Of a stretch of DNA of 64,000 nt, positions 11,801-33,747 are shown one piece after another. This DNA is from Branchiostoma floridae (Eukaryota > Chordata > Leptocardii > Amphioxiformes > Branchiostomatidae): assembly GCF_000003815.2 (NCBI RefSeq), contig NC_049987.1, forward strand, positions 19,812,614-19,876,613. The letters run 5' to 3'. The notes under the pieces are model-generated. The model did no database searches. It was not told the origin of the DNA and saw nothing but the letters and a program-made list of their open reading frames with translations. Both the position numbers and the translations under genes were made by a program. Position 1 is the first letter of the stretch. Every line of letters starts with the position of its first letter.

Positions 11801-11884
11801 TCATTCATTGTTATCCGCAGTGCGTTCGCCTCCACTGCTGCTGCTGGCATCTTGGGCTGATTCTGAAGTCTCAGAATCTGACGC
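11801..11884 (-). CDS. Second 3' cassette, terminal exon
   Basis: After the acceptor ctccag (11885-11890) the exon reads ASDSETSESAQ..., a 27-residue Ser/Asp/Glu-rich tail ending in TGA at 11801-11803. It enters in phase 0 like the terminal exon at 16856-16984, and both start A-S/T-D with a similar hydrophilic composition, so I read them as paralogous last exons. It closes the cassette 14858-14712, 12648-12472, 11884-11801. Confidence 0.6.
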   Translation of the reverse strand, partial: ASDSETSESAQDASSSSGGERTADNNE

Positions 11885-12471: not shown

Positions 12472-12648
12472 CATTGGATCGGATCGGAAGCGGAACATGT
12501 ACGGGTTGTATGGCATGAGGCGAGAAGCGCCGGGGGCCAGGGGCGCACAGCTGTACCGGCCGGTCACCATCCTACCGCAGTAGTACCCGCGGGGGCAGTC
12601 CGAGTTCCGCCGGCAGCTCGGCAGGCTGGCCAGGAAGTGGGGGAACAA
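12472..12648 (-). CDS. Second 3' cassette, Cys-module exon (paralogue of the 17.3 kb exon)
   Basis: Fifty-nine codons, phase 0 on both sides, between an acceptor with a pyrimidine tract (...ttccctgtgggtag) and the donor gtaaca. The four-cysteine module is C-RRNSD-C-PRGYY-C-x8-C (GYYCGRMVTGRYSC), followed by APLAPGAS and the aromatic/Asn-Pro tail MPYNPYMFRFRSDPM. The paralogous exon at 17215-17427 has the same order: hydrophobic lead, Cys module, APRGAP, then repeated LYNP and FLFRTE. The Cys spacing and the tail make real coding likely. Confidence 0.7.
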
Positions 12649-14172: not shown

Positions 14173-14711
14173 CTTGGTTGTGCCTTGAGGGCATCCGCCA
14201 GTGATTCAATATACAATCTCTTAACAATGGGTTCCTATGCCAAAAAGAGGAGAAAGCAACTGTTAATAACTCAACTTTCTCGGACGTTACTGGCACACAA
14301 ACATGCCCTCATTTGAAAGCCCGACATCTCAGCTATCCAAACAAACACATCTCGGCATGAATCTAACGGCACAAACTTCCGGGAAACTGAAAGATTGACC
14401 CATGACCTCAAAACCGCACCACAACCCAGTGAGGAGGCCATGTGCTTGGGCAAAAAAGTTCCAACTTTAAACCCCCTAACAACCACAAAAACTCAGCTTT
14501 TTGGCCCTAATCAGAAAGTAGAAACCCTCCCCTGTCACACCCACCTCAAAACTGCCAGGATTTCTACCCATCTACCAGAAAAAAAATCTTGAAGTTTTAG
14601 ACCCTGAACTATATTCGACCACCATCAATTTGCATGGCGGATTGACTGGCGGATCCCCTAAAGAACCTTACTACTTTGTATATGCATGTTAATGAGAAAA
14701 GCGTGTCGTAC

Positions 14712-14858
14712 CGCGCTGTTGACATAGTGAGCAGGCAGTCCGCTGACGCTTCTCGGGATGCAGAGGTGAGTCTGCCCCAGGCCGCGGAAACTCTGACAAT
14801 AGTCTCCGGGAAGTCGGCAGTCCCCGTTACTCTGGCAGGTCGTCGTCAGAAAGGGAAC
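14712..14858 (-). CDS. Second 3' cassette, first Cys-module exon (paralogue of the 19.0 kb exon)
   Basis: Forty-nine codons, phase 0 on both sides, acceptor ...tgttttgttccag and donor gtacga. The protein runs VPFLTTTC, then a Cys module with C-x5-C-x6-C-x11-C spacing (CQSNGDC, LPGDYCQSFRGL, HLC), then SVSGLPAHYV. The exon at 18929-19084 reads RPFFTVTC, CNSDADC, IPGDYCQTFHGL, GVC, TVSGLARHYV, so the two are clear paralogues. No other upstream exon of this second set was found between here and 16.8 kb. Confidence 0.75.
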
Positions 14859-16855: not shown

Positions 16856-16984
16856 TTACGAACCGAGAAGCCCAGGTGGTCCCCTGGAAGCCGGTTGGCC
16901 TCCTCCCCGCCCCGACTCGGCCTCGTTCCCCTGCTGCTGGGCAGACTCACCGGGCTGGCCGGACTCAGAATGAGGGTCAGTAGC
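16856..16984 (-). CDS. Modular gene, terminal exon
   Basis: After acceptor ...actttaag the exon reads ATDPHSESGQPGESAQQQGN, then a Gly/Arg/Pro tail ending GPPGLLGS and TAA at 16856-16858. Forty-two residues, phase 0 entry. An internal ccc-g/gtgagt resembles a splice donor, but using it would leave phase 1 with no matching downstream exon seen. Confidence 0.6.
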   Translation of the reverse strand, partial: ATDPHSESGQPGESAQQQGNEAESGRGGGQPASRGPPGLLGS

Positions 16985-19900
16985 CTTAAAGTAAACATTT
17001 AAAACAGGCCATTAATGATTTATGTCCTATAAAATCAATACATTGATAATAATGCAAATGACTGAAATGTTTTCTGATATGTGTTGGTACAAATGTGCAC
17101 AGAGAAGAATCGGTGGACTTATCAGAGCTCTTTATTCACATTAATTCAGATATCTAGTATCTAAAGAAAACAACAAACGTTAGGACTGATGACAATACGT
17201 CTACAGGTACTTACTTCTGTCCGGAAGAGGAATGGGTTGTAGAGTCCATACGGGTTGTACAGCCCGTAAGGGTGAGGGTAGAAGGGTGCCCCGCGCGGCG
17301 CACAGGCCAGTCCCCCCGCCACTACGCTGCTGCTGGCACAGTAGTGAGTGGCAGGACAGTCGGCGTCGGTCACACACGCCCTGCCGCCGGCCAGAGCCAG
17401 AGCTGCCGCCGTGGGCAGGTAAGGATACTGCCGGAGACAAGGTAACAGGTTGGTATCATTTTCACCATTACGAAGAAGCGAGGAGAAGCCGAACTTCTGT
17501 ATTACACAAGATTTGTGTTACTTTTATACAACACATGTATGTATATATGTTTTGACTTGTTGTGACCCTACTTGGCTCGGTCGGGCAAAACTGTACAATA
17601 AAAGTCTTCATTCATTCATTAATCCTTGCTATCCCTGATTTCACTTCGACAACATAAAAGGTCAAACATATGTTGCCGTTATTTTCGTATCCAAGACTTC
17701 ACTCACTATCACCTTGAGCTCTTAGCTTTCTTCCTTCCTTCCTTAAGTAGCAACCATGTTTCAAATAATGTCAGCAGAGGATAGAACTCATCAAATGTAT
17801 GATTATACTCTGCCCCCCCCCCCCCCCAAAAAAAAATTCTGTTGTGGGTTCAAGGCTCACATAATTTATGTTCAAACTATCGAGAGTAACGATGGAGTCA
17901 AAAATTATCAACGATAGGTGGTTCTTAAACTTCACAAACTCCACACTGATGGCTGTATTGATTCAAAACACCCCCGTAAAGTGGAAGCACCCCCGTATTG
18001 TAAACATATTTACCGGAGTTTGAGGGCGCAAAGCAGCAGCCTATTGAAGAAAACATTCACATTCATTGAAACAGTGTAGATTGCCCATATACAGAGAAAC
18101 ACCGTATATATATATATATCTATCTAACACTTTAATCCAGGAACTATTCATGCAGTTCGATTAAAGGTATCATCGTCGTTACCTTTAACTGGATTTCTAG
18201 AAATATGGCTTCATATTCAAACATGATTTCAAAGACAAAAAAACGTACAAAGGTCAAATCACATACACCTTTTTATCAATGAAATTTCGTTTAATATACG
18301 AGATTTTGGTCTCACGACAGTTGCCGCCTCAATGGAAAGAAGCATCAGTGATTCCGATTTATGTGAACATGTCGTATATGATTCTTCAGTTCATTCAAAA
18401 TATATCTACTGCTAAACGGAGAGCAAGAGACAGTTTGATTCAAAACGGAGAGCAAGAGACAGTTTGATTCAAAACGAAAAGAAAAAGTTTGATTCAAAAC
18501 GGAGAGCAAGACACAGTTTGATTCAAAACGGAGAGCAACAGACATATCTTGATTCAAAACGGAGAGCACGAAACAGTTTGATTCAAAACGGAGAGCAACA
18601 GACATATCTTGATTCAAATCGGAGAGCACGAAACAGTTTGATTCAAAACGGAGAGCAACAGACATATCTTGATTCAAATCGGAGAGCACGAAACAGTTTG
18701 ATTCAAAACGGAGAGCAAGAAACACATCTTGATTCAAATCGGAGAGCACGAAACAGTTTGATTCAAAACGGAGAGCAAGAAACAGTTTGAATTGATTCAA
18801 AACGGAGAGCAAGAAACAGTTTGATTTGAAACGGAGAGCAAGAAACAATTTGATTCAAAGATTCAAAACTGAGAGCAAGACACGGTTTGATTCAAAACGG
18901 AGAGCAGGAGACAGTTTGATCTACTCACGTAGTTGGGGACATAGTGCCGGGCCAGTCCGCTGACAGTCGCCGGGACGCAGACGCCCGTCTCCCGTAGACC
19001 GTGGAAGGTCTGGCAGTAGTCGCCTGGTATGGTGCAGTCCGCGTCCGAATTACATGTCACGGTGAAGAATGGTCGACCCTGGGCCTGGTTAAGAAATTGT
19101 GAACGTGTCCTTTAATTTGGAATCGCTCTCTTTTGATGATAAGGCACGAATCTGATTACAAAGTGTCCACACACTAAGCTGTCATAGATCGTGATGCCGG
19201 TAGGGCAGTATGCGTTTCAACAATATAAACAGAGTAAAACATGAACAGTGCAACATTAGACAAGTATTAAGAGACGTCACATATCAAGAAAGCCATACAA
19301 CAGCAAAGCCACAGATAACATCGATTCTAAGCTGATAATTAGATGGCGAATTAAAACGGACCACACCATCATACTTCATATTTGACAACGTCAGATGTTA
19401 CAAGCATTAGGAACGTGGGGAGATGAGGGTTAGGGGACCTTTGATACAAAGTGAGTTTTGATGAAAAACACCGAAGCGAGGGTTTTGGAAGCCCGAATTG
19501 ACTCAACATACACATGTGTTATTGACGAAACGGGCAAGATTGTCATTATTCAACACCAGTTTTGCGACACGTAAAACTAAATCATACGAATCATACATAG
19601 AACTATGTACCACACAGATTAGTTCCTATTCACACAATTAGATACTACGTTAAGTTTATTAATTCAGGTTCAAAACCACACCAAAAAAGAACAAGACAGT
19701 GTTCATACCTTCGATCGAACAGTTCTTCCAAAATCAGCCGAAGAGTCTCAGATCATGAGCCTCAATTCAGCACCTTCCATCCAAGTGGACGGGACACATT
19801 CTTGTACACGAATGGTTTACCTTCCTATTGCATAATTGTGTCGTGTGGAATTATGTAAATTCAAGCAAGATCTTCCAGTCGCTGCAATGTTTTATTGTAT

Positions 19901-22900
19901 GCAGCAGAACAATAGACTATTTACAATAACGCATACTTTTACTTGCAAAGTACCGTGTACAAGTATGACAATTCATTTTAGCTGTTTTCCCTACAGCGGT
20001 TATACTTAGACTCTGATTAGTATAAGTTTATTGTATTTCATGGTATTAGATTGATCATTTTAAAGTTAAAAGCGTAAAGGGACACATGTGAAATAAACAA
20101 GCAAAATATATAATTTCTTCTAAATACTTTATTGTAACAACTTTATACACTGTTTTATTTTGATTGCTTCACATCAAATAGCTTGCATATCTCCGCATGT
20201 CTACACTCTATGGTCTCCTTCAATTGATGTAACATTCGCATGGCAACAACTAAGCACGATGGTAATCTATGGGTTAGCACAGTTTCTTAATTCATCACAT
20301 CATCACTTATTATTGATTTTATACTGTTTACCAGTTAACAGTGAAACTAGTAGATTTCAGAGTGATACAGGCACACACATGACTCTGCGTATACGTAGAT
20401 CTTTCAATATCATACTACAATGAGATCGTATTATTCATCTGTCAATCAATTGTCTTGCTGTCGGCTTCTTCAGTCTTCAGCGATCCCGCCTTCAAAGTTA
20501 GCAACTATCAGAGAAAAAAGATGGTTTTATTTATGTTTTGTTATTTTTAAATATTTTTCCAGATTTCTTATAGGGGAAGGCCACTGACGATACTTGTGTT
20601 ACACAGTCTATGGATGCCTGGGGAACCCTTCCAAGATCTCGTGGCCATACCCTTCTAACTTGAGATAAGCGTTCACAGAACTACCAATAGGACCTCAGGA
20701 TTCTTCATCACTATGATAATCAGTCAAGAAGGAGCTCAGTATTTTCTTTCACTATTGAAACTGGTCATCAAAGCTTGTATTTAGTGGTGCTAAGTCTGAC
20801 AATGATTGGTCCAAGGTGGCACATATGCAGAAATCACTAAGATATTCCGGATTCTCCTGACTCAGGCGTACGTCACATTTCCAATGCGGGCCGACCGGGC
20901 AGCTTTCGGGATCAAAAAGTATGATAGGAAAGACACCAAACTACACAAGACGTAAAGACATTAGTTGTAGGCATTATTTGTGCATATTTTTACGTACACA
21001 TTTCAATTTTTCGTTTCCACAAATATTCCGGTTTGAAAATGTGACGTAGGCCTAACCAATGGAAGGGCTGCTAAAAGCGTATTTCAGACATTCTAATGTG
21101 ATACTCACCAGGCTGTTTCTGTGGGGGCTGCTGTCCTCTCGCGGCTTGCGGGGGGATCCAGGGCCCCTGCATGACCGGTGGCATCTGCCCCTGACCTTGC
21201 CCCTGCCCGGGAACTTGGGGAGGAGGCGGGAACCGGTTTCCCCCCATGGGCACAATGTCGTCGTTTCCAGGCTTTGGCCCTTCTCCGCGGGCCACGTTCT
21301 CCCAGAACTTCTTCATCGCCTCCTCAGCCTTCTTCCTCATCTCTTCGTGCTTCGCCCTCATCTCCTCCTCCTGCTCCGGAGTCAGGGATGGGGGAGTGCC
21401 TGCTCCGGGAGGAGTGCCTGCTCCGGGCTCACCGGTCCCCTCGCTGACGTACTGCGTATCAATATTTCACAAATGATCACTTTTGAATTGTTACAACAAT
21501 CAGATACAAAATAAGTATTTGTTTGAACCTTTGTTTAGTCATTCAAGCTCAAATCGGCCTGCAAGCCGCTTTTCATTGAGGTCATGAGGGAAGAGGCAAG
21601 GGTCAGACAAAGTATATAACAGAGATGCAATGTATATAGTTTAAAGTCCTTATGAGTCTCATAATTAACTATGGTTCCCTAGATTGAGCTGTAAAACGTC
21701 TGGCGACACCTTGGAGGAAGCTTGCAATAAACAGGGTTGAGTGTAAGATCTGAAGAAAGACTGATTGCAGCTGCAGAGTGTACATACCATGCACAGCAGT
21801 AGAACACAGTGGACTTAAACTACTACATCTTGTCCATGAAATATCTATGCACTTCCAAGATTCTTTGCTTGCTCAGGCGGACCGGTACCTGTTGTTTCAT
21901 CAAACATCCTGAGAAACATGTCCTGTTGTGTTCTTCAGACTTATGAAGTATAATAGAGTATATGTACGGCCCCCATTCCACTTGACGGCGCTCTCACCGC
22001 GCTCCTATGGCGACCTTGGCGATCCCACTGCGCTCTCAAAGCGATGGTCACATTTGCCATCACCGTGAGAGCGCCGTCCCAGTGGAATGGGGGCATTACA
22101 GATGGATCAATTAATCTATTCAACCCAATAAAAGCAAAACAACTCACCCCAAGGTAGGGGTGTCCGTAGTATGGGTAGGCTCCGTAGTGGTAGGGATATC
22201 CGTATCCGTAGCCACTATAGCCGTAGTTGTAAGGATAACCGTAATTATAAGGGTATCCATAGCTCTGGAGAAACAAAAGGAACAAAACAATAAATTTGGA
22301 TGCTACATCAGAAAGGTGCCATCTCTGGTTGATATATTTGGGAAATAGATTTGATATCATTGTAGTTTTGTCGAGGTTATCATAGGCACTGAGTAGGTAG
22401 ATAGATATGATGGGAAGGACTAGCGGATACATGGCACAATTTTCCATTTCAATCCAGCTGAGCTCTGCACGACACATCCAAAACTGTCCAAAGAATGTCC
22501 TCACTTCTTCCGTACGACATATGTGACATATGTGACATGTGATAGTTCAGAAGCTAAAACAAAAAAAATTATAAGAAAAAAGTTTTATGATCTTACGTAT
22601 GGGTATCCGTATCCATATCCGTATCCGTAGTAAGGGTAGGCATAGCCGGCCCCACCGTAGCTGACGTAGGAGCTGGGGACGCAGAGGGCCCGTCCCACAG
22701 CCGGGAACTCCTGGCAGGTGTACCCGCCGCCGTTGCAGTCTTCGTCGCTCTCACACGTATTGGAGAGGGCTGGGTGGGACCCTGTATACCCGTACCCGTA
22801 TCCTCCATAATACGGGTAATACTGTGCCTGTAGAAAAGCCAGACAGAACCGTGTAAGTGGCGCTCAAGCAAATGTTGTACGAGGAACGGGGTAAGATAGA

Positions 22901-25900
22901 ACACTACAAAGGAGAAAGGCTCTGAGGCCATCTATGGTTAACATTGGCTCAACCGCAAAATATTGGAAGGCCCAAATTTGAAACTAACTCGTGAGGAGAA
23001 GAGGGTAACTCCATGAGGCAGTCCAGGTGAAGTTAGAACTTATATAAGATATAAGACTTTTTCACCGGCAAATAAAGAACTTTTTTCGAAGGAAGAATCG
23101 TTGTAAAACATGGTGCGATAGATCTAGACATTGCCGCTAAGTCTATTCATTTTGGGGCATTTGAGGGGAGTTTAATTGATATTTTTCTTCATGATGCAAT
23201 AACACCGTCTATTTCTGTAATATAATGCGCATTAGGATTCACTATATCTTTTATTCTATCACAGCTCTATTTCAAGTAATCAATAATCATGTTTTAGGAC
23301 CTATCTACCGTCTTTACGATAACGGCAGTAACACAACAAAAGGAACAAATTGCAGCATACCTTCAGGGGGCATTCCGAGGATGCTGCGGCCAGTCCAGAA
23401 CAAAAAAATCTACACCACAGAGTCAACATAGGGGCGGTGCGAAATGATATCACACCAGGTTTGAGCCAATTAAAGATATAGCAACGGATGTAAGGCTCAC
23501 ACTCTCACAACCATCCTGCAGATAATACACATTTGTATGTTCGATCAAAGAATACAATCATACAGCCTCGACTAGCATCGTCATCTGCAAAACAGCAGCT
23601 TTTATTTCAAAAATCATATACATGGTTTGAAACCAGGTGGTAGTCCGTGAGCACACAGCAATAATAAGAGCGAGAATATCTTCGTTTATGATACTGACGT
23701 ATGACGCAAACTACGTACGCAATCCACATTTCTTTTTCCACATTTGTATAAGACACGTAAAGAATACATGTATTTTGTATCGCAAAATATCATGCGTTCA
23801 AATTGTATTTTCCCTTTGTCAACGTCCGTACCAGAATGAACATGATGATTCCTATTTGATTAATTTTGACTTATTCCTTATCAATTGTACACTAGATTTC
23901 AGCAGTTGTAATCGACACGAGACTGTCAATCTTTGGGAGCTCTATGTCAAAGGGATGACTTTTAAAATCCACATCAGATTCTTGTTAAAATGGCTTGTGA
24001 TAATCTTAATCAGTCACACATGCTATGCTAAAGATCACCCACACATTGCATTGCTAATCAGCAGGCTTTGCTGGCAGTAGAAATTAAATCAGTGTCCTTG
24101 TCCGGTCTGAGTCTTGTCATCATTTGTGCAAGTAGAACAATCACTGTCTTCAACAACTCCCCTGTGTCTTTAATTCACTGCGACTCCGTCGTCGTTTACT
24201 ACAGAAAAAGAATTTTGAAAAAGATGTCATTGATGAGTAGCAAGCCCTTCAAAAGAAGGTTGCTACATAAAACCGTGTTGCCACAGCCGAATATCCCATG
24301 CCAATGTGTAACGAAAATCCAATACTGGGGAAATCAAAGAAAAGTTAGAGTTACCTTACCTCTATTGCAAACGTTATGGCGTTATGATTATCTACTAAAT
24401 GCATTTTGTGCGTGCGACAGCATCAATCAACACAAGCTACGTTACCTTGCTCCTCTGTAGCAGGCCTCCGTCCCCTGGGCACGCGGGGCGGCATCCACCT
24501 CCTCCTCTCCTCCTGGTTACCTTGGTTACCCTGCTCCCCCTGGGGTGGGGGCGGCGGTGGAGGGAGCCATTCACCTCCCATCGGCACCACGTGATCCTCC
24601 AGGCTCTCTCCGGGCTTCAGCTGCTCCTTGCCTTGCCTGTTCCTCCAGAACTCTTCTGCCTTCTTCCTCATCTCCTCGTGTTTGGCCTTCGCCTCCTCCA
24701 GCTGCTCGGGTGTGAGGGTCGGGGGAGGGCCCTGCCGTGGCTCTGCCGTGCCCTCGCCGGTGTACTGAAGTGTGACCGGCAAAATGTGGATTTTCAACAA
24801 CTATACCTACCACAAATGATAGATTTACCTTCCTTACGATTTGAAAGATGAAAGTGAAGATACTTACCCCAACGTATGGGTGACCATAGTACGGGTAGTA
24901 GCCGTAGCCGTAGCCGTAGCCGTAGTAAGGGTATGAGCCGTAGTAGTTGTAGTAGGGGTAGTTATAACCATAGTACCCGGATCCGTAGTAGTCGTAGTAG
25001 TTGTAGTAGGGATATCCGCCATATCCATAGTATCCGTAGTACTACATTCAGAACAAAGAGAAATTTCATTAAGAATAGAGACACAAACTAAGCAATATTG
25101 TCGATGTCGCCTGTTGCTGAAAGGGGTTTTGCTACGTAACATCAAATTGCAATGTGGCACAGACAATATTTTGAACTAGAAAGGCCGACATTTGCTTAAG
25201 AGCAAATACAGCATATTTCAGCCATACCCCTTCCCACGCAACATTGGACTGTTCCAAATCACCCCTGCGCAAAAATGGAACATCCTCTTAACAGTACATT
25301 ATCCCCCAAAGTGGACTGGTATTATGAATTGATTCCAGGTAAAAACAGAGCTTGTTTCTATTTTTCAGAAAATGACAATAATCACACCTTCCATTCAGAA
25401 AATTTTCATCATGACTGAAAATTGTTGAATGACTTCATGTAATGTCATTAACAATTTTCAGTACGATAACTAGGTGTAAGTTTAAAAAAGTATAAGCTCC
25501 TTGTGATGTGGGTACATTCATTATTGCAGTGAACTTTTTTTTATTCAAGTAGGGCATACGATTTAATAATTATCAAGCAGGTGCAGGTACTGTAGGAGCG
25601 TTTGTTTTCTTCAAGCTGTAAAACTGTTAAACTGTTTTACTTTGTATGCAATCAGCCATCGAGCCTATTCTTATTTTAGTTTAACAACTTCCTGCCAGAC
25701 CCGGAAGATACGATTGAACCTTGTTCGAGGATTTATTTTCGTCTGTCTGGTCAGTCTGTTCATACCCTCGAGGCTGGCGCTGAGAGTGTTTTATTGGGCT
25801 GAAACTCTGGCAGTTTAAAGTTACTTACAATTTAAATGTTCAAAGTTTATGTCAAACAACAACAGCACTAGGAAATGTGGCCACTATAGACAGGTGGTCA

Positions 25901-28900
25901 CTATAGAGAAAATGCTGATCTATTGACTAGGAGCCATACGTTACACATGATCATTAATCATATAAACATTGCACAGGTAAGCCAATTGTTTAGATGTACA
26001 ATTAAGTTCAAATAATTCTGAACAGAAATATTGATGAGAAAATAATCATTCTCGCCACTGTCTAACTTATAATTACGTATCAAAACTAAACGCAGATTTT
26101 CTAACTAACGCACCTTTCGCCGACTTCATCAAAGGACCGCCGGCTATCAATCAAACACGGCTGTTGATTAGACTTAGAGTTTCAAACAGCCATGTGCTGC
26201 CAGTTGACAGCGAACTTCATGCTACGTGATGTTTTACATTGCTTGGACCTTCTTTCCTACAGCGGTGCTTCTACAAAATATTTAGACTGTAACACTGAGT
26301 CCCACATGTTTTATAGAATAGAATTTGACGCAGAACAGCGTTTTTTGCTGGGTATTTTTCTTGAAACATGTTCGTGGGAATATCAGCGAGGCGGCGACGT
26401 AGGGATATCAGACCGTCAACAAAAGTCGCACGGCGGCTAACGGCGCATCGAAGATACTAGCGCTATAAATAAGCGCTTCAACTAAGGATGGCAACCCGTA
26501 CAATATTTATGTATACTGTTGAGCTAAGTAAAGTTTGTTGTTTATGAGGTTTTAGTTGTCTTTGAAGCTTTGACCCGAAATATTTTAAAGTCAAACTGCT
26601 GAAGAGAAGTAAGTGACTGCTACGATTATCGTAGATATGGCCCTAAAAAAACTGATAAAAGAAGCCTTCTCAATAGTCTAAAATGCAAGAGCTTCCGGGG
26701 GGGCTTCCCCCCCCACACAGTGGCCCTGGACCCCGCCAGGGACATTCGGCGGCCCCCGGACCCCTGTCCGACGCTTTGAAAAAATCCTGGCGAGAAGTCT
26801 GTACGGCCTGAGTCTTCAAGTTAACGTATTGTGTGGTCCCGCTTATGAATATTAATTAGCCTTCGCTGATTGGCCGAACCATTAATTGAATTAACTCTTC
26901 CTGCCGGCTAGACGCAGGTGCAGATGTCGGCTCTGTGGGGTGAACGTCCGAAAGATCATGGCATGGAGAACGAAAGAAAACCAATTTCCCCTAAAAAAAG
27001 TGCTGTAATTAAGCCTTTTACAGTACTTTAAGCCAAAAATTTTACTTGGATCATTTTACCAATTATCTTATGCCTATCTATACCAAATGTTACTCATACC
27101 AGGGTACAGGGGTGCAAAATATACTGTTATAAGACCGTCAACAACAGTCGCACGGAGCTAACAGCGCAGCGAAAATACCATCGCTAGCGTTTCATCTTCG
27201 GATAACAAGTTATAAGTACTGTTGAACTCAGTAACGTTAAAGTTTGTTTTTAGTTGCCTTTGACGGTTTGACCTGAAATAGTGTTACGCTAAACTCCTGA
27301 AGAGAAGTTAAGTGACTGCTGCGATTATCATAGATATGCCCCTAAGAACTGATACAATATAAAGCCTTCTGAATAGTGTAAAATGCGAGAGCCTCAGGCG
27401 GGCTTCGCTCCCCCTGGCGGGAACACTGCTATATACGGGATCATGAGGCCCCGCTTATGAATATTAATTAGCCTTTGGCCTCCGCTTCGCTGATTGGCTA
27501 GGTCTTTGATTCAATCAACTCTCCGGCTGACGCGCACAGGTGTGGCTCTGTGCGGGGTCACGGAAGGTCACGTCAGGAGGCCAAAAGAAAACAAATTTCC
27601 CCTCAGAAAAGTGCCAAAATTAATCATTTAAAGTTGTTTATGTCAAAAATTTGACTTGAATCTTGTTACCAAGTATCTAATGCCTATCTATACCAAATTT
27701 CAGGTCATTTAATTGTAATACCAGGGTACAGGAGCCAAAAGTGTCCTTTTTTGGTCAAAAATTGGCCAAAAATCGCAAAAAATAAGCCTTTTGTTGCACT
27801 GTACACCAAAAGTGTTATTGAATTTATATGAAGGTATTATCAAGGCACATCTGTGTCAAATTTCAGCTCATTCGGTTGCAATACCAAGGTACAGGAGCCA
27901 AAAGTGTCCTTTTTTGGTCAAAAATTGGTAAAAAAAATCGCAAAAATAAGCATTTTGTTGTACTGTACACCAAAAGTGTTATTGAATTTATATGGGGGCA
28001 TTATCAAGGCACATCTCTGTCAAATTTCAGCTCATTTGGTTGTAATACCAGGGTACAGGGGCCAAAAGTGTCCTTTTTTGGTCAAAAATTGGTCAAAAAA
28101 TCGCAAAAATAAGCATTTTGTTGTACTGTACACCAAAAGTGCTATCGAATTCATATGGGGGCATTATCAAGGCACATCTCTGTCAAATTTCAGCTCATTT
28201 GGTTGTAATATTAGGGTACAGGGGCCAAAATATACAGTTTTGGTCTAAAATTGACCAAAAAAATCTCAATAAAATCATTTTAGAGGCAGATATGAAAAAA
28301 CTGAGAAAAAAGCATCAAGGTATTGGCCCATTCTACCCCTGTGCCAAATTTCAGGTCATTCGGTCCAGGAACGGCGGAGATGAATCACTTTGAAGATTTG
28401 ACAGGAGAAAGAAGAAAGAAAGAAAGAAAGAAACATTACGAATACAATATATTTCACCATACTATGTATGGCTGAAATATAACAAAACTTCTGAAACATC
28501 ATTACATCAGCAATTCTGCACCCAGAAAACGGAATGACAGTAATAAATTGCCAACCAAAATGCGACATGCGTTACCGTTTACGTCATGATTATGAGCTTT
28601 TTCGACCACCAGATTAGCTTGTATTATGTCCATGTCTCTGCATAGTCCGTCTATAGTTAGCCTTACTGGAGACGATAGTAAAAAGATAAAACAACGTACA
28701 TCATATGGGTATCCACCGTATCCGTAGTAGCTGCTGTACGGGTATTGGTACTGGCTTGGCGTGCAATAAGACTTGCCGCTGACGGGCGCGAATTGACACC
28801 GGTACCCGGCGGACCTGCAGTCGCTGTCACTCTCACATTCGGTTGCGTGACCGGACACACCATAGAACTGGTTGTACCCTGGATAACCCGGATAACCCAC

Positions 28901-31900
28901 CTGCGCCTAGAGGGGGACGAAAGTCATGAAATACCAGCGGTCAAAATGGTGCGTCTGACAACTGACGCTGCTGGACGGCAGTGCGCTAGGAGGGTCATCG
29001 CAGACCTACCCATACATGGGGGAGAAGGGGGTGATGAAAGGACTACTCAACGTCTACCCAGAGGTGGATACACGTTATGGATGGAGGAAGGGGGCTCAGT
29101 CGTTAAAAAGAAATGACAGCATTCATTTGGTGCCAAATGTTTGTGGAATTTCGATTTATATAAAGCCAGGCATTTTCTACGTTCAACTAACTACGTGACA
29201 AAATCTATGTCTAAAGGTGTTGATCTGAGCAGTGTTTCTGACCTTATGCACAGGAACTTTTGAACGTAAATAGAACACAAACAATCAGCTTTAGATGTTT
29301 TCTTATTAATTAAGCCATATACAACATGTTGGAATGTATGAAAATATGTAATACGGGGTAATCATGTGACGGTGGTCTCAAATGGTGCCTAGGATGAGCT
29401 ACCTTAAGATTTAAGGGCATGAATTGCTTTTTTGTCAAAGTTAATTTTCAGTCATGAAACATTGATCAACCCAAGGTATGACCATAACATGCTGCTCTTC
29501 CTGGCCTACCTACGCTACTGGACACGCCCCACATCATGTGTCGTGTAATGTTAAACCTGATTTGGTTCTCTAAACTGGCCTGCGAAAAGCAAGGAGAACA
29601 GTTTTGAAAGTTTTCAACTTACCAGAGTTTCCGTGTGGTGTTTTGTACTCAGCGGGGACCAACCTCTCCGCAGATAGACATGCCACAGCCGAGTTCGGAT
29701 TATTGTTGAATCAAGTCAATGACAATATGCGGTACATATAATCGTGTCCCTACTTCATTTTTAACGAATCAGAAATGAAGAACTAAGTATTTCTCAGAAA
29801 AAAAGAAATGCCTACATCAGTGACTAGATCATTTTATTTTTCGTACTAAAATATTTTACAAAAATGACAGCTTTCATGCTAGAATATTTTACAAGTACTG
29901 TAATCTTACTGTAATGCTGTTGCATACACATTTCCTAAGTTTTGTTGTTCTATGTTGGATATGTATGATGACTTTGTGTAATTTCTACATGACAATGTCT
30001 TTATAACAGTAAGAAATCCAGCTTCTTCTTTCCAATAAAGAATCTTTCGCTTGAACACATTCTTTCCTTTCATTAGAAGCATTATAAAAGATCATCAGAG
30101 TATCTATGAACAGTTCGGATCGATATGACATAAACAAGAACTATTAAGGGAAAAAAGTGTGCACAATTATTTCTCATTGATTTCCACAAGCATTGTTATT
30201 GCAGCATAACCATCAATATAAAGGGTTTTGTATTATATTTTTGATTTCTTTCAGACTACTGACATTCCACGAAGCCATGGCACGGCTTATAGCATCTCTA
30301 GCAGCCAAAACATCAATACGTAAAATTACAGAAACGCAATTGAAATCTTGTGCTTGATTTCACAAAATCACCTCCTTACATGCAGACGGCATGATTACAG
30401 GTCGCCTATCGATAATCCATTACAAAAGGTAACTAGTGTGAGAACTGCTTTGCACAACTACATTCGCCTCACCTGTTACTGCGGATATTTCAAAGTTGTG
30501 GTCCCATTGTATACACTGTTGTACTCCAGGGCAGATAGCTCTTCGGAGTGAAAAACCTAGAATCGTTACTACTAAAATCTGTTGATGAATTTTATGACAA
30601 AGCAAGTCTTTAAATAGCATTACCTGTCCTTTCTGACATTAGAATGATCATAGCAGATGATGACAAGTTAAGTCTTATCAAATATATAAAACATACGTCA
30701 ACAAAAAAATAGCACCGAGATAAGATTCTTACATTCAACGTTGGACGGTTGACTTTTTCACTAAAAACTCGCTTTCACTGAACGGTAGTTGCAGTTATAT
30801 CCACAACGACAATTTCGAATTTCACTGTGATTGGTTGTCTGTAAACTTCCCCGTGACTGTGGGCAAAATCACTCAGCCATAGTATCCAGACCCGAGGTCC
30901 TACAAGTAAGCAAAGAACGGAACTCTGTAAGTATCGTTGGACATCAAAAGTTTACACCGAAATGTACTGCTCATTTCATGCTTGTCTGCAACATCTTAAA
31001 AACAACAAAAGGAATAAAAGGTTTAAAAATTCAGCATAAAACTTACAGGGGGTCCTGGTCTTCCCGCGGGAACACGGCTTGGTCTTCGTACTCTTCCTCC
31101 CCGAATGCAAACTCCATAATGCCGTACGCCCATGCCAAATGAGTAGAATGTATCGCAGTAGCTGTTATCATAGTCGTCGCAGTCTTGATCCCGGTAGCAG
31201 TACTGAAACTGTCAAACAGACGATATACGTAAGACCTGACAGCAAATGATATAGATGGTTCTTGAAAATTGACAAATAGTGTAAAGGATATAAAATGAAC
31301 ATGCTTTATTATAGAAAATCCTTACCCGACATAGCCCATAGTCTTGGAACAAGAATGAATGTTTGTCACAGACTTTTGCTGCATCACAATCACTGTCACT
31401 GTAGCAATAGGGCTGGTGGGGACCAAGAAACACAAACAAGTTTATCAATAAAATAAAGATATTGGGATGATTTACATGTTTTTGGCCTGGATATAGAACA
31501 CTTGAAATATATATTTAACTTTCTGTTTACTGAAGGCAAACGCCTCGGTAGACGAGACGTCAGAGCATGAGTGAGGGCAGGATAGGAATGCTTTAATCTT
31601 TAATCCTCAAACATACAGGGACCTGGTTGTCGTCTTCATGTTGAAAGGCCTACAGATCAGAAAATGAAAACATTGCGAATATGCCTACATCTTGAGTCGT
31701 CTAGGTGAAGAAGAAAATACCTACCGATCTTGGCGACCTTTTACATAGTCCATAGTTGGTGTCCCTGTAGTAGTCGCAGTAGGTATTGCCGTCGCAGTCC
31801 GCATGGCTGTAGCAGTACCGAGGCTGATAGGAAAATTAAATCATTGATAGATCAATCAACCACATAAATGGAGATAATGCAATAACATAAAAAGAATATT

Positions 31901-33747
31901 TCTCTTTGCATGCTACAGTGCTTTCTAATCAATACATCAAATTATACCAACTTGGCTTAACGTCAGTGACTGACAATTAGTTAGAAAGAGGATCCCTTTG
32001 AAAGCCATTTATCAAGTTTTCAAGACAACTGTTCTCAGTAACGTCAGCAAATCTTACCCTGCAGATTCCTCCACCAAAGTAGAATCTTCCATATGTTATT
32101 GTGTCGCAAAATGTAGATGGGCCACAATCATTGTCCGAGTAGCAATAGGTCCTCTGAAAACCAGCAAAGTAATTTGATGTAAACGACGTTGAATGATGAG
32201 CGTGCAACCTGTAACATCTGAACCTAAGGAAAACTCAGAAAGCTACAATTAGAGCTAAGGTCTAAGAAATTTAATCAAATTGGAATGGAAGGAAATGATC
32301 GTCAAACTCTAAATGAAAATGTTTTTGTATGAGGTGCGCTAGGGGTATTGCTGGGGTAAATAGCAAACCCTTAGTCTGGTTGGGCGGTCACTGTTCCGAA
32401 CACACGTTCCGTACTGGCCGAAGATCTGGGCGTCACAGTAGCTGTATGCGTCACAATCGACGTCGCTGTAACAGTATCGGGCAGCCTGGCAGAAAACATA
32501 GTACAAAGCGAGTGAAACGGAAGCAGGGTTAGTGCTTGCAAAGTCACATTGTGTCGTTAGAAAGCTTCTATGTCGAATAAAAGCTGAGCATGGAGAGTGT
32601 TAGGTTGCTTGCTTGTTTGTTCAGCGTACATTCTGGTCGCTAAGCGCTGAATTCTAGTGGAAAACATCGGATCGCACAAATAATAGAGACGAAAATTGAC
32701 TGATACTCACTTGAGGTGATAGCTGTTCCGAAGCACCACCGCGAGGCTACCGCGTCACTGCGCTAAATCGGCCATCTTTTCCAGGAGGACCCGGATGTAG
32801 GACCCGGATGTTCTTACCACAAAACTTCGTTTCCGAGGCTACGTCATCGAACGGGGCGAGGAGCTGTAACGCTGTGCCTTACACAGATGTAGTTGAGTGT
32901 AAAAAGAAATCTTTGGAGAGGACTCCGCCGAAACCTGCAGCTATGTCCGCCATATTGTGGTGCAAGGTGAGGAGGAATGTGACCTGAAAGCAGCTGCCAG
33001 GTTTGCGGTCCCTTCCAAAACGCGACATCACAGCAAACATGCGGTTGAGCTTCGGTACAGCCATAACCTTAAGTGATTGCTAGATGTTAAGTTCTAGCAT
33101 GAGAAGTAAATAGTCTACGATCCGTACCTCCAATGGTATGTTCTTCAAGCAGAGGCACTGGCCTAGTCAAACTCAGCTTGAGAACAGATTTTGTAATATG
33201 ATATCTATGCACATATCTTGTAACACTGAAAACTGGGTCATGGAAGGTTTTTTTCCTGCTCTAACAAGGGCAAGTTTAAAACAAGTTAAGAAAATCTTTA
33301 TCATGACAATTTCCTTATTTTTCTTTTAATCTTTTTTTGGGATATCACCCTCTTCTCCCCATCGTTCATGTATAATCAATACACATTATAGGTGCCAATA
33401 TGGCGGACATGCTTGTATTTTTCTGCACTGATTCATTTACTTTTACTTCGTATCACTTGCTGTTCTTTCAGACGTAAAACTTTATCGTTAGATTCCATTT
33501 CGGTTAACGTAATCAATCATGAAATACATACCAGTTTATAAAACTATAAAAGATATAATAGTTTTTTTTTTTTCATTTTGAAGAAATACAACAGCAAACT
33601 TGGACAATTAAAAGCAACAGATGCTGCATTCAATGACAATGTACATCTATCTTTCAGATGTGTGGCTGGAAGACGTCTTACCGACACAAGCTGTGCCGAT
33701 CCCACCACAACAGCCGTCAGGAACAACAGTAATCCGCAGGTCCCCAT
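16856..33747 (-). CDS. Modular secreted Cys-module / Tyr-Gly-Pro protein, ~17 exons
   Basis: Predicted exons (minus strand, high to low): 33747-33682, 32485-32396, 32153-32058, 31823-31725, 31412-31326, 31202-31047, 28906-28700, 25041-24868, 24764-24446, 23383-23361, 22827-22597, 22264-22148, 21451-21109, 19746-19709, 19084-18929, 17427-17215, 16984-16856. The sum is about 847 aa. A signal peptide is followed by five Cys-module exons, then twice the block Cys module, Tyr-rich exon, charged/proline-rich exon and micro-exon, then two Cys modules and a hydrophilic C-terminus. All junctions are phase 0 except those entering the two micro-exons (phase 1), and the frame closes throughout. Nine modules give 36 cysteines. 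The module spacing is loosely like the Dickkopf N-terminal cysteine pattern, but I do not recognise the family. A cross-linked matrix or adhesive role is inferred from composition. The two micro-exons and the 32.4 kb donor are the weak points. Confidence 0.72.
17215..17427 (-). CDS. Modular gene, Cys-module exon with LYNP tail
   Basis: Seventy-one codons, phase 0, acceptor ttgtctccggcag, donor gtaagt. An alanine-rich lead (YPYLPTAAALALAGG) precedes the module C-VTDAD-C-PATHY-C-x11-C. The tail FYPHPYGLYNPYGLYNPFLF contains a tandem YGLYNP. Sharp splice sites and the conserved module make this a confident exon. Confidence 0.75.
18003..18052. repeat. Dispersed ~48-bp repeat, third copy
   Basis: tatttaccggagtttgagggcgcaaagcagcagcctattg, the same unit as at 13106 and 13319, here in the intron between the 19.0 and 17.3 kb exons. 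Confidence 0.65.
18279..18365 (+). pseudogene. Degenerate reverse transcriptase scrap
   Basis: FRLIYEILVSRQLPPQWKEA followed by SVIPIY resembles the RT segment I-x-x-x-S-L-x-x-G-x-x-P-x-x-W-K-x-A-x-V-x-P-I-Y-K of non-LTR retrotransposons. The match lasts only about 29 codons before the minisatellite. Confidence 0.4.
18409..18920. repeat. 30/60-bp minisatellite abutting a splice donor
   Basis: The unit gattcaaaacggagagcaag plus acacagttt is repeated about 17 times. In the centre it forms a 60-bp higher-order unit alternating acagacatatctt and acgaaacagttt. The array ends about 8 bp from the donor of the exon 18929-19084, so it fills the very start of that intron in transcript sense. Open frames through it follow from the period being divisible by three. 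Confidence 0.9.
18929..19084 (-). CDS. Modular gene, Cys-module exon (SVSGLARHYV type)
   Basis: Fifty-two codons, phase 0 in and out, acceptor ...tttcttaaccag, donor gtgagt. Starts AQGRPFFTVTC, then the module C-NSDAD-C-TIPGDY-C-x11-C and ATVSGLARHYVPNY. The leading Ala-Gln is shared with the first residues of the exons at 28906 and 22827, which also begin a block. Paralogous to 14712-14858. Confidence 0.75.
19709..19746 (-). CDS. Candidate 38-nt micro-exon linking block 2 to the C-terminal block
   Basis: The exon at 21109 leaves phase 1 while that at 19084 enters phase 0, so a connector is required. At 19746-19709 a segment between atctgag and gtatga enters phase 1 and leaves phase 0, encoding (D)SSADFGRTVRSK. 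The other connector at 23361 also ends in Lys with a gtatg donor and has Ser-Ser at its start. The acceptor lacks a good pyrimidine tract, so this is tentative. Confidence 0.3.
20864..21055. mobile_element. MITE family 3, copy a
   Basis: The left end aggcgtacgtcacattt is matched inverted at the right end by aaaatgtgacgtaggcct, with inner mates gggccgaccgggcagc and attccggtt. The length is about 192 bp with no ORF. A second copy lies at 62793-63000 and a terminal fragment at 55597-55652. Confidence 0.75.
21109..21451 (-). CDS. Modular gene, block 2 charged-helix and proline-rich exon
   Basis: One hundred and fourteen codons plus one base. Acceptor ...gatacgcag, donor gtgagt, phase 0 in and phase 1 out. 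Order: YVSEGTGEPG and an AGTPPG repeat, then a charged segment LTPEQEEEMRAKHEEMRKKA predicted helical, FWENVARGEG, DDIVPMGGNRFPPPP, and a Gln/Gly/Pro tail with GQGQGQGQ. The exon at 24446-24764 has the same order with LTPEQLEEA, KAKHEEMRKKAEE, FWRN and VVPMGGEWLPPPP, so block 1 and block 2 are internal duplicates. Confidence 0.72.
21968..22094. mobile_element. Short palindromic MITE, relative of family 2
   Basis: ggcccccattccacttgacg and gcgctctcaccg at the left are inverted as cggtgagagcgc and cgtcccagtggaatgggggc at the right. The ends and the gcgctctc motif match MITE family 2, but the AT-rich interior of that family is missing. It lies in the intron next to the Tyr-rich exon at 22148. Confidence 0.75.
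22148..22264 (-). CDS. Modular gene, block 2 Tyr-Gly-Pro exon
   Basis: Thirty-nine codons, phase 0 both sides, acceptor tttgtttctccag, donor gtgagt. The exon is almost wholly Tyr, Gly, Pro and Asn (for example GYPYNYGYPYNYGYSGYGYG) and ends AYPYYGHPYLG. The block 1 counterpart at 24868 ends YYPYYGHPYVG, showing common descent. Tyr-Gly-Pro composition of this kind occurs in structural, silk-like and adhesive proteins; the exact role is unknown. Confidence 0.72.
22597..22827 (-). CDS. Modular gene, block 2 Cys-module exon
   Basis: Seventy-seven codons, phase 0, acceptor cttttctacag, donor gtaaga. Begins AQYYPYYGGYGYGYTG, then the module C-ESDED-C-NGGGYT-C-x10-C, then VPSSYVSYGGAGYAYPYYG and a Gly-Tyr run ending YGYPY. 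Same layout as the exon at 28700-28906. Confidence 0.75.
23361..23383 (-). CDS. Candidate 23-nt micro-exon linking block 1 to block 2
   Basis: A connector is needed because the exon at 24446 leaves phase 1 and that at 22827 enters phase 0. The 23-nt segment between ggccgcag and gtatgc (a T-rich run lies further upstream) enters phase 1 and leaves phase 0, encoding (A)SSECPLK. Phase agreement, a good donor and the parallel with 19709-19746 support it. No transcript evidence is available. Confidence 0.4.
24446..24764 (-). CDS. Modular gene, block 1 charged-helix and proline-rich exon
   Basis: One hundred and six codons plus one base, acceptor cacacttcag, donor gtaacg (phase 1 out). Contains YTGEGTAEPRQGPPP, the helix LTPEQLEEAKAKHEEMRKKA, FWRNRQGKEQL, DHVVPMGGEWLPPPPPPP and an Arg/Pro-rich end (WMPPRVPRGRRP). 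Paralogous to 21109-21451. The helix plus VPMGG is the best conserved non-Cys element of the protein. Confidence 0.72.
24868..25041 (-). CDS. Modular gene, block 1 Tyr-rich exon (31 of 58 residues Tyr)
   Basis: Fifty-eight codons, phase 0 both sides, acceptor ctctttgttctgaatgtag, donor gtaagt. The exon reads YYGYYGYGGYPYYNYYDYYG, continuing in the same style to GYGYGYYPYYGHPYVG. Tyrosine is 53% of residues, the rest mainly Gly, Asn and Pro. There is no Cys or Lys, so intermolecular contacts would have to come from tyrosine itself (dityrosine, DOPA, stacking). That chemistry is inference. Confidence 0.75.
26405..28390. repeat. Diverged direct repeats: two ~0.65-kb copies, then ~164-bp tandem units
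   Basis: Sequence from about 26407 (agaccgtcaacaaaagtcgc) repeats from about 27131 (agaccgtcaacaacagtcgc), and the two stay alignable through cttatgaatattaattagcc and ataccagggtacagg. From about 27700 a 164-bp unit (caaggcacatct... ccaaaagtgtcctttttt) is repeated with starts at 27841, 28005 and 28168. All of it lies in the intron between the exons at 28700 and 25041. Frames translating it are by-products. Confidence 0.8.
28700..28906 (-). CDS. Modular gene, block 1 Cys-module exon
   Basis: Sixty-nine codons, phase 0 both sides, acceptor tcgtccccctctag, donor gtacgt. Order: AQVGYPGYPGYNQFYGVSG, module C-ESDSD-C-RSAGYR-C-x10-C, then a Tyr/Gly/Pro tail ending YSSYYGYGGYPYD. This is the first exon of the duplicated block. 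Confidence 0.75.
30430..30700 (+). pseudogene. Possible degenerate Ty3/Gypsy-type pol scrap
   Basis: VTSVRTALHNYIRLTCYCGY followed by VVPLYTLL resembles the RT thumb/connection segment of Gypsy-type retrotransposons (V-x-x-F-L-G-x-x-x-Y-Y-R-x-F-x-x-x-x-A-x-x-x-x-P-L-x-x-L). Loosely RNase H-like sequence follows in another frame. Very weak; it lies in an intron. Confidence 0.22.
31047..31202 (-). CDS. Modular gene, fifth N-terminal Cys-module exon with basic tail
   Basis: Fifty-two codons, phase 0, acceptor gacagtttcag, donor gtaagt. Module C-YRDQD-C-DDYDNSY-C-x15-C with the longest spacings of the set, then a basic proline tail GGRVRRPSRVPAGRPGPP. The RVRR resembles a furin site, but Pro at P1' argues against cleavage. 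This exon bridges the plain Cys modules and the Tyr-rich blocks. Confidence 0.7.
31326..31412 (-). CDS. Modular gene, fourth N-terminal Cys-module exon
   Basis: Twenty-nine codons, phase 0, acceptor tccccaccag, donor gtaagg: PYCYSDSDCDAAKVCDKHSF then LFQDYGLCR. Module C-x5-C-x5-C-x12-C, one module per exon. Confidence 0.72.
31725..31823 (-). CDS. Modular gene, third N-terminal Cys-module exon
   Basis: Thirty-three codons, phase 0, acceptor ctatcag, donor gtaggt: PRYCYSHADCDGNTYCDYYR then DTNYGLCKRSPRS. Module C-x5-C-x5-C-x10-C. Confidence 0.72.
32058..32153 (-). CDS. Modular gene, second N-terminal Cys-module exon
   Basis: Thirty-two codons, phase 0, acceptor ttttcag, donor gtaaga: RTYCYSDNDCGPSTFCDTIT then YGRFYFGGGICR. 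Module C-x5-C-x5-C-x14-C. Confidence 0.72.
32396..32485 (-). CDS. Modular gene, first N-terminal Cys-module exon (donor uncertain)
   Basis: Acceptor tatgttttctgccag, then AARYCYSDVDCDAYSYCDAQ and IFGQYGTCVR. The sister exons end Cys-Arg before gtaag, but here no consensus donor follows. The best phase-0 options are gtttgc after ...RPTRLR (exon end 32369) or a weak gttcgg directly after the last Cys. The end given (32396) marks the last residue aligned to the sister exons. Confidence 0.6.
33682..33747 (-). CDS. Modular gene, first exon: signal peptide
   Basis: Twenty-two codons from ATG at 33747-33745: MGTCGLLLFLTAVVVGSAQ then LVS, followed by donor gtaaga (phase 0). This is a classical secretion signal with a hydrophobic core and likely cleavage after GSA. 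A TATAA-like string lies about 55 bp upstream in transcript sense (near 33799-33803). The next exon in the same strand and phase is the Cys module at 32485. Confidence 0.7.

What the first reader, a model, noticed from the sequence alone, without database searches (positions are those of the whole stretch)
16856..33747. Unrecognised modular secreted protein built from phase-0 exons: four-Cys modules, Tyr-Gly-Pro exons and charged-helix exons
The sequence directly shows a signal-peptide exon, then nine exons each with one four-Cys module (C-x5-C-x5-7-C-x10-15-C, usually C-x-S-D-x-D-C at the start). Two duplicated blocks add Tyr-rich and charged/proline-rich exons. Splice phases are consistent across 17 kb. 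I know of no family with this combination. One module per phase-0 exon is a design suited to exon shuffling and length variation. A cross-linking or adhesive extracellular material (for example notochord sheath, cirri, pharyngeal bars or mucus) is an inference from composition.
Basis: partly seen in the sequence, partly recalled or inferred. Interest (0 to 1): 0.88.

Follow-up and report, generated by a model that had tools for sequence, protein, structure and literature searches.

The report
Half-Dickkopf modules in tyrosine-rich lancelet proteins
A lancelet-type chromosome carries a cluster of exons for what look like secreted proteins made of small four-cysteine units, each resembling half of a Dickkopf signalling-protein domain, mixed with pieces that are up to half tyrosine; this may be a cross-linked extracellular material, and it offers a way to study how the Dickkopf/colipase fold was built from one half-unit.

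Summary
Nine four-Cys modules lie on the minus strand as stated, two more outside the range (14760, 12547). Random sequence gave 0-4 loose and 0 strict matches. Five of six duplicated exon pairs show clear protein-level constraint.

Corrections. (1) The two charged exons have their best donors in phase 1 and run into short stop exons. With two more stop exons the region reads as four stop-terminated blocks, two tandem-duplicated pairs. One strong signal-peptide exon was found. (2) The module is not wholly unrecognised: joined window modules match the first half of Pfam Dickkopf_N (27.1 bits, cut-off 25) and have the Cys spacing of the first subdomain of Dkk4 CRD1. The genome's two true Dkk CRD1 exons start in phase 0, two codons before Cys1. 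Sister arrays lie on contig C19. (3) The charged exon was found only at this locus; for the Tyr-rich exons the search was insensitive.

Best reading: a cluster of secreted proteins with single-subdomain Dkk-type modules, probably an oxidatively cross-linked matrix. Function is inferred from composition only. New variant of a known kind.

The parts
33682..33747 (-). leader (signal-peptide) exon MGTCGLLLFLTAVVVGSAQLVS, phase 0 out
   Evidence: hydrophobic window 3.1, donor 3.3; strongest of 11 candidate ATGs listed for 11-46 kb minus strand
32369..32485 (-). module exon m1 (x5,x5,x10); weak donor (-2.3)
32058..32153 (-). module exon m2 (x5,x5,x14); its acceptor (4.3) was not the top pick of the automatic scan
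31725..31823 (-). module exon m3 (x5,x5,x10)
31326..31412 (-). module exon m4 (x5,x5,x12)
31047..31208 (-). module exon m5 (x5,x7,x15) with GRPGPP tail
30873..30899 (-). possible short alternative terminal exon DLGSGYYG-stop
   Evidence: acceptor 6.9; may be unused
28700..28906 (-). block 2a Tyr/Gly-flanked module exon; donor weak (1.2), 28667 (2.1) is an alternative
   Evidence: 58% aa identity to the 2b copy, pN 0.35 pS 0.73
24868..25041 (-). block 2a Tyr-rich exon (58 aa, 53% Tyr)
24446..24764 (-). block 2a charged/Pro-rich exon, taken to end in phase 1 at 24446 (donor 3.3; 24575 scores 3.9, also phase 1)
24263..24324 (-). candidate terminal exon of block 2a (V-LDFRYTLAWDIRLWQHGFM-stop)
   Evidence: best phase-1 acceptor after the charged exon, 7.9
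23361..23429 (-). weak candidate leader exon for block 2b (MLTLWCRFFCSGLAAASSECPLK)
   Evidence: hydrophobic window 1.79, donor 4.0, phase 0; doubtful
22597..22827 (-). block 2b Tyr/Gly-flanked module exon; donor weak (0.8)
22148..22264 (-). block 2b Tyr-rich exon (39 aa, 44% Tyr)
21109..21451 (-). block 2b charged/Pro-rich exon, ends in phase 1 (donor 6.2); acceptor poor (-3.8)
20470..20504 (-). candidate terminal exon of block 2b (V-ANFEGGIAED-stop)
   Evidence: acceptor 6.2, phase 1 in
18929..19084 (-). block 3 module exon A
   Evidence: 55% aa identity to the block 4 copy
17215..17427 (-). block 3 module exon B
16856..16984 (-). terminal exon of block 3 (ATDPHSESGQPGESAQQQ...GLLGS-stop); acceptor only 2.1
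   Evidence: G+C 0.67 against 0.38 in flanks; weak similarity to the block 4 terminal exon
16951..16998 (-). candidate leader exon MFTLRLLTLILSPASP for block 4, overlapping the block 3 terminal exon in another frame
   Evidence: hydrophobic window 2.04, donor 6.1; conflicts with the reading above
14709..14858 (-). block 4 module exon A (outside reported range); 3' end uncertain, no good phase-0 donor seen
12472..12648 (-). block 4 module exon B (outside reported range); both ends uncertain
11801..11884 (-). block 4 terminal exon (ASDSETSESAQDASSSSGGERTADNNE-stop)
   Evidence: acceptor 7.5

Best explanation
The region codes for a cluster of secreted proteins whose cysteine modules are single subdomains of the Dickkopf/colipase type (two disulfides, expected C1-C3 and C2-C4), one per phase-0 exon. 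The first gene runs from the leader exon through five modules and, most likely, into a Tyr/Gly-flanked module, a 53%-Tyr exon, a charged-helix/Pro exon and a stop. Block 2b is a tandem duplicate of the 2a part; blocks 3 and 4 are duplicates of each other. Mechanism, inferred: the disulfide modules are rigid beads, the Tyr-Gly-Pro arms are sites for oxidative cross-linking (dityrosine or DOPA), and the charged helices associate, giving an insoluble or adhesive extracellular material. Shown here: open exons and their phases, stops, constraint between duplicates, module resemblance. Inferred: splicing, secretion, disulfide pairing, cross-linking, tissue.
For: Modules far above chance. pN below pS in six of six duplicated pairs, clearly in five. 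Dickkopf_N matches of window proteins have their best stretch at profile positions 1-26 of 51: joined five modules 27.1 bits against a cut-off of 25; joined C19 modules reach 39.5. Spacing x5, x4-7, x8-15 in 35 modules (the x5 was imposed for the 11 window modules, 4-6 was allowed for the 24 from C19) against x5, x5, x9 in Dkk4 CRD1. Both Dkk CRD1 exons of this genome start in phase 0 exactly 2 codons before Cys1; module exons start within 5 codons of Cys1 in 28 of 37 rows (22 of 25 on C19, 6 of 12 in the window). AlphaFold2 model of m1, pLDDT 80: of its 20 Foldseek rows 19 are, by my reading of the titles, small disulfide-rich folds, among them squash knottins, a two-disulfide intermediate of MCoTI-II, Draxin, mamba intestinal toxin 1 and Dkk4 CRD1. 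PMC6078440 (passages) gives disulfides C41-C53 and C47-C63 in that subdomain. Tyr 53% and 44%.
Against: No transcript data. No structure match is significant: all 20 have E of 0.99 or more, and the Dkk4 row itself superposes poorly (rmsd 7.6, probability 0.07). hhalign of the modules against the genome's own Dkk exon: probability 17.9%, E 0.0014, 19 columns. The PDB search with the module profile did not list Dkk4. Single window exons stay under the Dickkopf_N cut-off (18.4, 17.5 bits) and four gave no Dickkopf_N row. In the whole-genome Dickkopf_N search the window appears once, at 17.9 bits. One C19 exon with two modules matches positions 2-47, not just the first half. The Cys exons of blocks 2 and 3 start 10-24 codons before Cys1 and do not share the Dkk exon edge. 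Several splice sites are weak: donors of m1 -2.3, 2b.cys 0.8, 2a.cys 1.2; acceptor of 2b.chg -3.8. No cross-linking chemistry was tested.
Confidence: 0.5

Rival explanations
1. One leader exon (33747) serves several alternative, stop-terminated 3' cassettes (2a, 2b, 3, 4): a single switchable gene rather than neighbouring genes.
For: No convincing leader exon in the 2a and 3 gaps and only weak or conflicting ones for 2b and 4. The first exons of blocks 2a, 2b, 3 and 4 open in phase 0, as the leader and m5 close. A C19 array of 21 module matches has one strong leader candidate, at 10455500, with 8 weaker ones (donor 1.0 or less) inside the array.
Against: The leader scan is crude: it gave leaders for 3 of 4 array units (window, C19 II and III) and none for C19 unit I. 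Other candidates exist: 23429, 16998, a hydrophobic frame at 28460 (2.91, donor 1.5) in simple sequence between two 2a exons, and 30620 (2.97, donor -0.9) in the 2a gap. Ordinary tandem gene duplication is commoner.
Confidence: 0.2
2. One reading: one continuous 17-kb gene from 33747 to 16856.
For: Same strand, mostly phase-0 exons, one strong leader; long module arrays exist on C19. The charged exons do have poor phase-0 donors (-2.4 and -2.8), hardly worse than the m1 donor (-2.3) that I accept.
Against: The charged exons' good donors are all phase 1, and each of the two phase-1 acceptors scoring 2.5 or more behind each charged exon leads to a stop. The next blocks begin in phase 0.
Confidence: 0.1
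3. The modules act as secreted inhibitors or ligands (protease inhibitor, Wnt modulator or knottin-like defence peptide), the Tyr-rich parts being spacers.
For: Best PDB sequence match of the module profile is a carboxypeptidase A inhibitor, E 0.00082 for the whole chain. Structural neighbours include squash trypsin inhibitors. Resemblance to Dkk.
Against: No CRD2 match over cut-off; no conserved loop between Cys3 and Cys4 among modules; best single stretch of the PDB match has i-E 0.64. 53% Tyr arms are not expected of an inhibitor (judgement).
Confidence: 0.2

Closest known systems
Dickkopf N-terminal cysteine-rich domain (Pfam PF04706; Dkk4 CRD1, PDB 5o57)
   Same: First four Cys with the same spacing and CxSDxDC start; phase-0 exon start beside Cys1 in this genome's Dkk genes
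   Different: Only 4 of 10 cysteines; no C-subdomain and no CRD2 found; many tandem copies; Tyr-rich and charged exons
C19 arrays of the same assembly (10.37-10.45 Mb and 15.35 Mb)
   Same: Leader exon (two of three units) and mostly one four-Cys module per phase-0 exon
   Different: Pro/Gln linkers in several exons; no Tyr-rich or charged exons seen in the module exons printed
Colipase-fold, AVIT/prokineticin and knottin peptides
   Same: Small disulfide-stabilised hairpin; nearest structural neighbours of the models
   Different: Those have a third disulfide or a second subdomain (recalled); matches are not significant
Carboxypeptidase A inhibitor, PDB 3fju chain B (nematode origin recalled)
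   Same: Repeated C-x-S-D/N-x-D-C starts in a 65-residue protein
   Different: Weak match; no Tyr-rich parts
Tyr/Gly-rich cross-linked structural proteins such as fluke eggshell proteins (recalled; listing only)
   Same: Secreted, very Tyr/Gly-rich segments
   Different: No sequence relationship shown

Membership tests
Dickkopf family | Dickkopf_N profile match over gathering score | tested here: inconclusive
   Five joined modules 27.1 bits against 25; single exons 18.4 and 17.5, four others no row; best stretches at positions 1-26 of 51
Dickkopf family | 10-Cys CRD1 with five disulfides | tested here: not met
   4 Cys per module in 11 of 11 window modules; positive control: the genome's Dkk1/2/4-like exon has the full CRD1
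Dickkopf family | C-terminal CRD2 | tested here: not met
   No CRD2 match over cut-off in the module and charged exons scanned (best DIKK1-2-4_C-subdom1 13.4 bits, cut-off 27); Tyr-rich and terminal exons were not scanned
Dickkopf family | LRP6/Kremen binding, Wnt inhibition | not testable with these tools
   needs protein
Colipase-type fold | two homologous subdomains in one domain | tested here: not met
   one module per exon in the window; a two-module exon occurs on C19
Knottin (ICK) | three disulfides forming a knot | tested here: not met
   only four Cys per module
WAP four-disulfide core | PF00095 over cut-off | tested here: not met
   9.7 and 15 bits against 20.8
DUF7107 | PF23416 over cut-off | tested here: not met
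   20.5 bits against 24.6
Cross-linked Tyr-rich structural protein (functional kind) | signal peptide and Tyr/Gly-rich segments in one protein | tested here: inconclusive
   Leader exon and 44-53% Tyr exons are present; that they share a transcript is not shown
Cross-linked Tyr-rich structural protein (functional kind) | DOPA or dityrosine in the mature protein | not testable with these tools
   needs mass spectrometry

The most novel reading that the evidence does not exclude
One leader exon feeds several mutually exclusive, stop-terminated 3' cassettes, so a single locus makes a switchable set of cross-linkable matrix proteins. Its modules are free-standing copies of the one-subdomain unit from which the Dkk and colipase domains were proposed to have been built.
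Probability: 0.15. Interest if true: 0.75.

Novelty: new variant of a known kind. Interest (0 to 1): 0.5.

Why it matters
A published suggestion (PMC6078440, passages) is that Dkk and colipase domains arose by duplication of an ancestor with just one subdomain. Here is a genome with dozens of single-subdomain-like modules, mostly one per phase-0 exon, many with the same exon edge as true Dkk CRD1 exons. That makes the half-domain idea testable by folding one module, and its direction testable with other deuterostome genomes. The Tyr-rich blocks would be a new use of this fold in a structural material.

Tried and rejected
One-gene chain: set aside on splice phase and stops, though not excluded; its odds were raised from 0.08 to 0.1 on re-reading, because the rejected phase-0 donors are hardly worse than the accepted m1 donor. 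WAP, DUF7107, EB and Lustrin labels: below cut-off. Module-profile hits to aldehyde dehydrogenases and to the P2X4 head: chance-like. First fold model (block 3 exon A, pLDDT 66): weak; its top Foldseek row was mamba intestinal toxin 1 at E 0.4; replaced by m1. Leader scans by hydrophobicity and donor score are crude.

Slips and dropped rows. In one search the m1 exon was entered two bases too long (affects its G+C only), and the block 3 terminal exon three bases too long; one search gives the start 16984. Two rows (L049_15341939, W_13152) are probably false modules; they stay in the 30-of-37 and 28-of-37 counts, and were left out of the 35-module set, which also omits the modules of the 1139-aa frame on C19 and the extra C19 matches. 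For m2 (acceptor), 2a.cys and 2b.cys (donors) and both block 4 Cys exons I chose sites other than the top pick.

Limits of searches. The genome search with the 2b Tyr exon found only itself and missed the 2a copy; the search with block 3 exon B missed the block 4 copy. Exon 3.cysA and exon 2a.tyr were not searched genome-wide. A coiled-coil ORF at 60.1-60.5 kb looked myosin-rod-like from recall, but Pfam and PDB gave nothing at 0.001. Literature searches for amphioxus proteins of this kind found no description: 2 listed of 2; 15 of 118; 0; 0; 12 of 67; 10 of 20; titles and abstract starts only. PMC2652719 was opened (abstract and outline) and not used. No other lancelet genome was available to these tools.

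Full report
Setting. The window is a stretch of contig C9 of a 513.4-Mb, 431-contig assembly. Size and contig layout fit a Branchiostoma floridae assembly, which is my recall and not a call. The exons discussed lie on the minus strand.

Observation. A regular-expression scan found 14 minus-strand and 2 plus-strand matches to C-x5-C-x4..8-C-x6..20-C in the window. Eleven are the modules, nine inside the reported range and two beyond its low end (14760, 12547). Twenty first-order Markov sequences gave 0-4 matches, and none to a strict form. The leader exon at 33747-33682 is the strongest of 11 candidate ATGs listed for 11-46 kb. Two others deserve naming: 28460 (hydrophobic 2.91, donor 1.5, in simple sequence inside block 2a) and 16998 (2.04, donor 6.1).

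Coding reality. The later exons form two duplicated pairs: [Cys+Tyr][Tyr][charged] at 28.9-24.4 and 22.8-21.1 kb, and [Cys A][Cys B][terminal] at 19.1-16.9 and 14.9-11.8 kb. blastn at E 0.01 finds the Tyr, charged and Cys-A pairs; its other matches between blocks are outside exons and look like dispersed repeats. Nei-Gojobori-style counts give pN/pS of 0.35/0.73, 0.23/0.83, 0.31/0.69, 0.30/0.62 and 0.42/0.67 for five pairs, and 0.52/0.86 for the short terminal pair (no test of significance). Exon G+C is 0.44-0.67 against 0.35-0.47 in flanks. The Cys, Tyr and charged exons, including the two Cys exons outside the reported range, have been kept as protein; the terminal pair is the weakest case.

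Gene structure. The module exons are mostly phase 0 (30 of 37 acceptors, 30 of 37 donors in window and C19 together; 9 of 12 and 9 of 12 in the window). The charged exons' good donors are phase 1 (2a: 3.9, 3.3, 2.9; 2b: 6.2); their phase-0 donors score -2.4 at best. I accept an m1 donor of -2.3, so this argument is not absolute. Two phase-1 acceptors scoring at least 2.5 follow each charged exon, and all four open short frames that end in a stop without a donor scoring above 2. The best are V-LDFRYTLAWDIRLWQHGFM-stop (7.9) and V-ANFEGGIAED-stop (6.2). Block 4 ends in a stop exon with a strong acceptor (7.5); block 3 has one with a modest acceptor (2.1). The chain leader-m1..m5-2a is open and in frame. 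Beyond it, one protein is not supported. Leader exons for 2b, 3 and 4 were not found with confidence: 23429 is weak, 16998 overlaps a terminal exon, and block 3 has none. This leaves tandem genes with missed leaders, or one leader with alternative 3' cassettes. The caution of PMC4967905 (abstract and opening) on high rates of gene-prediction error in lancelets applies to any exon chain made by eye, mine included.

What the module is. Pfam gives Dickkopf_N for the joined five modules, 27.1 bits over a cut-off of 25, best stretch at profile positions 2-25 of 51; joined C19 modules reach 39.5. C1-C2 spacing is x5 in 35 of 35 modules, with x4-7 and x8-15 after it; x5 was imposed by the search for the 11 window modules, while 4-6 was allowed for the 24 from C19. 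The Dkk4 CRD1 sequence printed has x5, x5, x9 and the same CxSDxDC opening. PMC6078440 (passages) reports that CRD1 consists of two similar subdomains, the first with disulfides C41-C53 and C47-C63, and suggests that Dkk and colipase domains came from an ancestor with just one subdomain. The genome's own Dkk1/2/4-like gene (contig C3; PDB matches) and a Dkk3-like gene (C10; the Dkk3 label is mine) have CRD1 exons that begin in phase 0 two codons before Cys1. Module exons begin within five codons of Cys1 in 28 of 37 rows: 22 of 25 on C19, 6 of 12 in the window. The Cys exons of blocks 2 and 3 begin 10-24 codons before it. The AlphaFold2 model of m1 (pLDDT 80) has a small hairpin. Its Foldseek neighbours are squash knottins, a two-disulfide MCoTI-II intermediate, Draxin, mamba intestinal toxin 1 and Dkk4 CRD1; none is significant and the Dkk4 row superposes poorly.

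Results against this. hhalign with the Dkk exon gave 17.9% probability, E 0.0014. The module profile did not list Dkk4 in the PDB search; its best match was a carboxypeptidase inhibitor. Single exons fall under the Dickkopf_N cut-off or give no row, and the whole-genome Dickkopf_N search shows the window once, at 17.9 bits, among 22 matches. A C19 exon with two modules matches positions 2-47, more than the first half. I therefore file it as a Dkk-type half-module, not as a Dickkopf protein.

Family context. Contig C19 holds further arrays: 21 pattern matches in one orientation (10453696 down to 10432444; 16 of them given splice sites) behind a leader candidate MTSSLCLLMLSLVLQAVPYG at 10455500, with eight weaker leader candidates inside the array (donors 1.0 or less); a smaller unit at 15.35 Mb with leader MEMWISVCVLVLTLIQTA; a third near 10.37 Mb without a leader found; and a 1139-aa open frame with 17 matches. 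Genome searches with 2b.cys, 2a.chg, 3.cysB and 2b.tyr gave, outside the window, only matches of E 0.19 or worse. The last two searches missed even their known copies in the window, so absence elsewhere is firm only for the charged exon, whose search did find its copy.

How it probably works. Leader exon: secretion (inferred). Modules: small stable beads with two disulfides (inferred from Dkk4). Tyr-rich exons (53% and 44% Tyr): likely substrate for oxidative cross-linking. Charged LTPEQxEExxAKHEEMRKKAEE segments and polyproline: self-association. None of these steps is shown. A binding or inhibitor role for the modules is the main functional rival.

Verdict. A real, constrained and unusual exon cluster. 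The module resembles half of a known domain and the single-gene model is not supported, so it is a new variant of a known kind with moderate to good interest.

Noticed in passing
G000 C19:10380566-10383712 (L044), minus strand: 1139-aa open frame holding 17 four-Cys pattern matches in one frame, unlike the one-module-per-exon arrays beside it.
   Followed up: partly
window 18414-18920: 29/60-nt minisatellite inside the intron between the two block 3 module exons.
   Followed up: no
window 27694-28281: 163-nt tandem repeat, 3.6 copies, in the long intron of block 2a.
   Followed up: no
window 5958-6920 (+): Rhodopsin-type receptor frame (7tm_1, 66.9 bits).
   Followed up: no
window 2770-5079 (-): Reverse-transcriptase frame, probably of a retroelement (RVT_1, 120.3 bits).
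   Followed up: no
window 57340-60545 (-): Frames with stretches that look like a myosin rod (recall); no Pfam match for two frames and no PDB match for one piece at 0.001.
   Followed up: partly
window 16951-16998 and 16856-16984 (-): A leader-like frame with a strong donor overlaps a stop-bearing exon in another frame; both cannot easily be right.
   Followed up: partly
window 28389-28460 (-): Strongly hydrophobic ATG frame with a weak donor inside a TTTC-rich simple repeat; probably not a leader exon.
   Followed up: no
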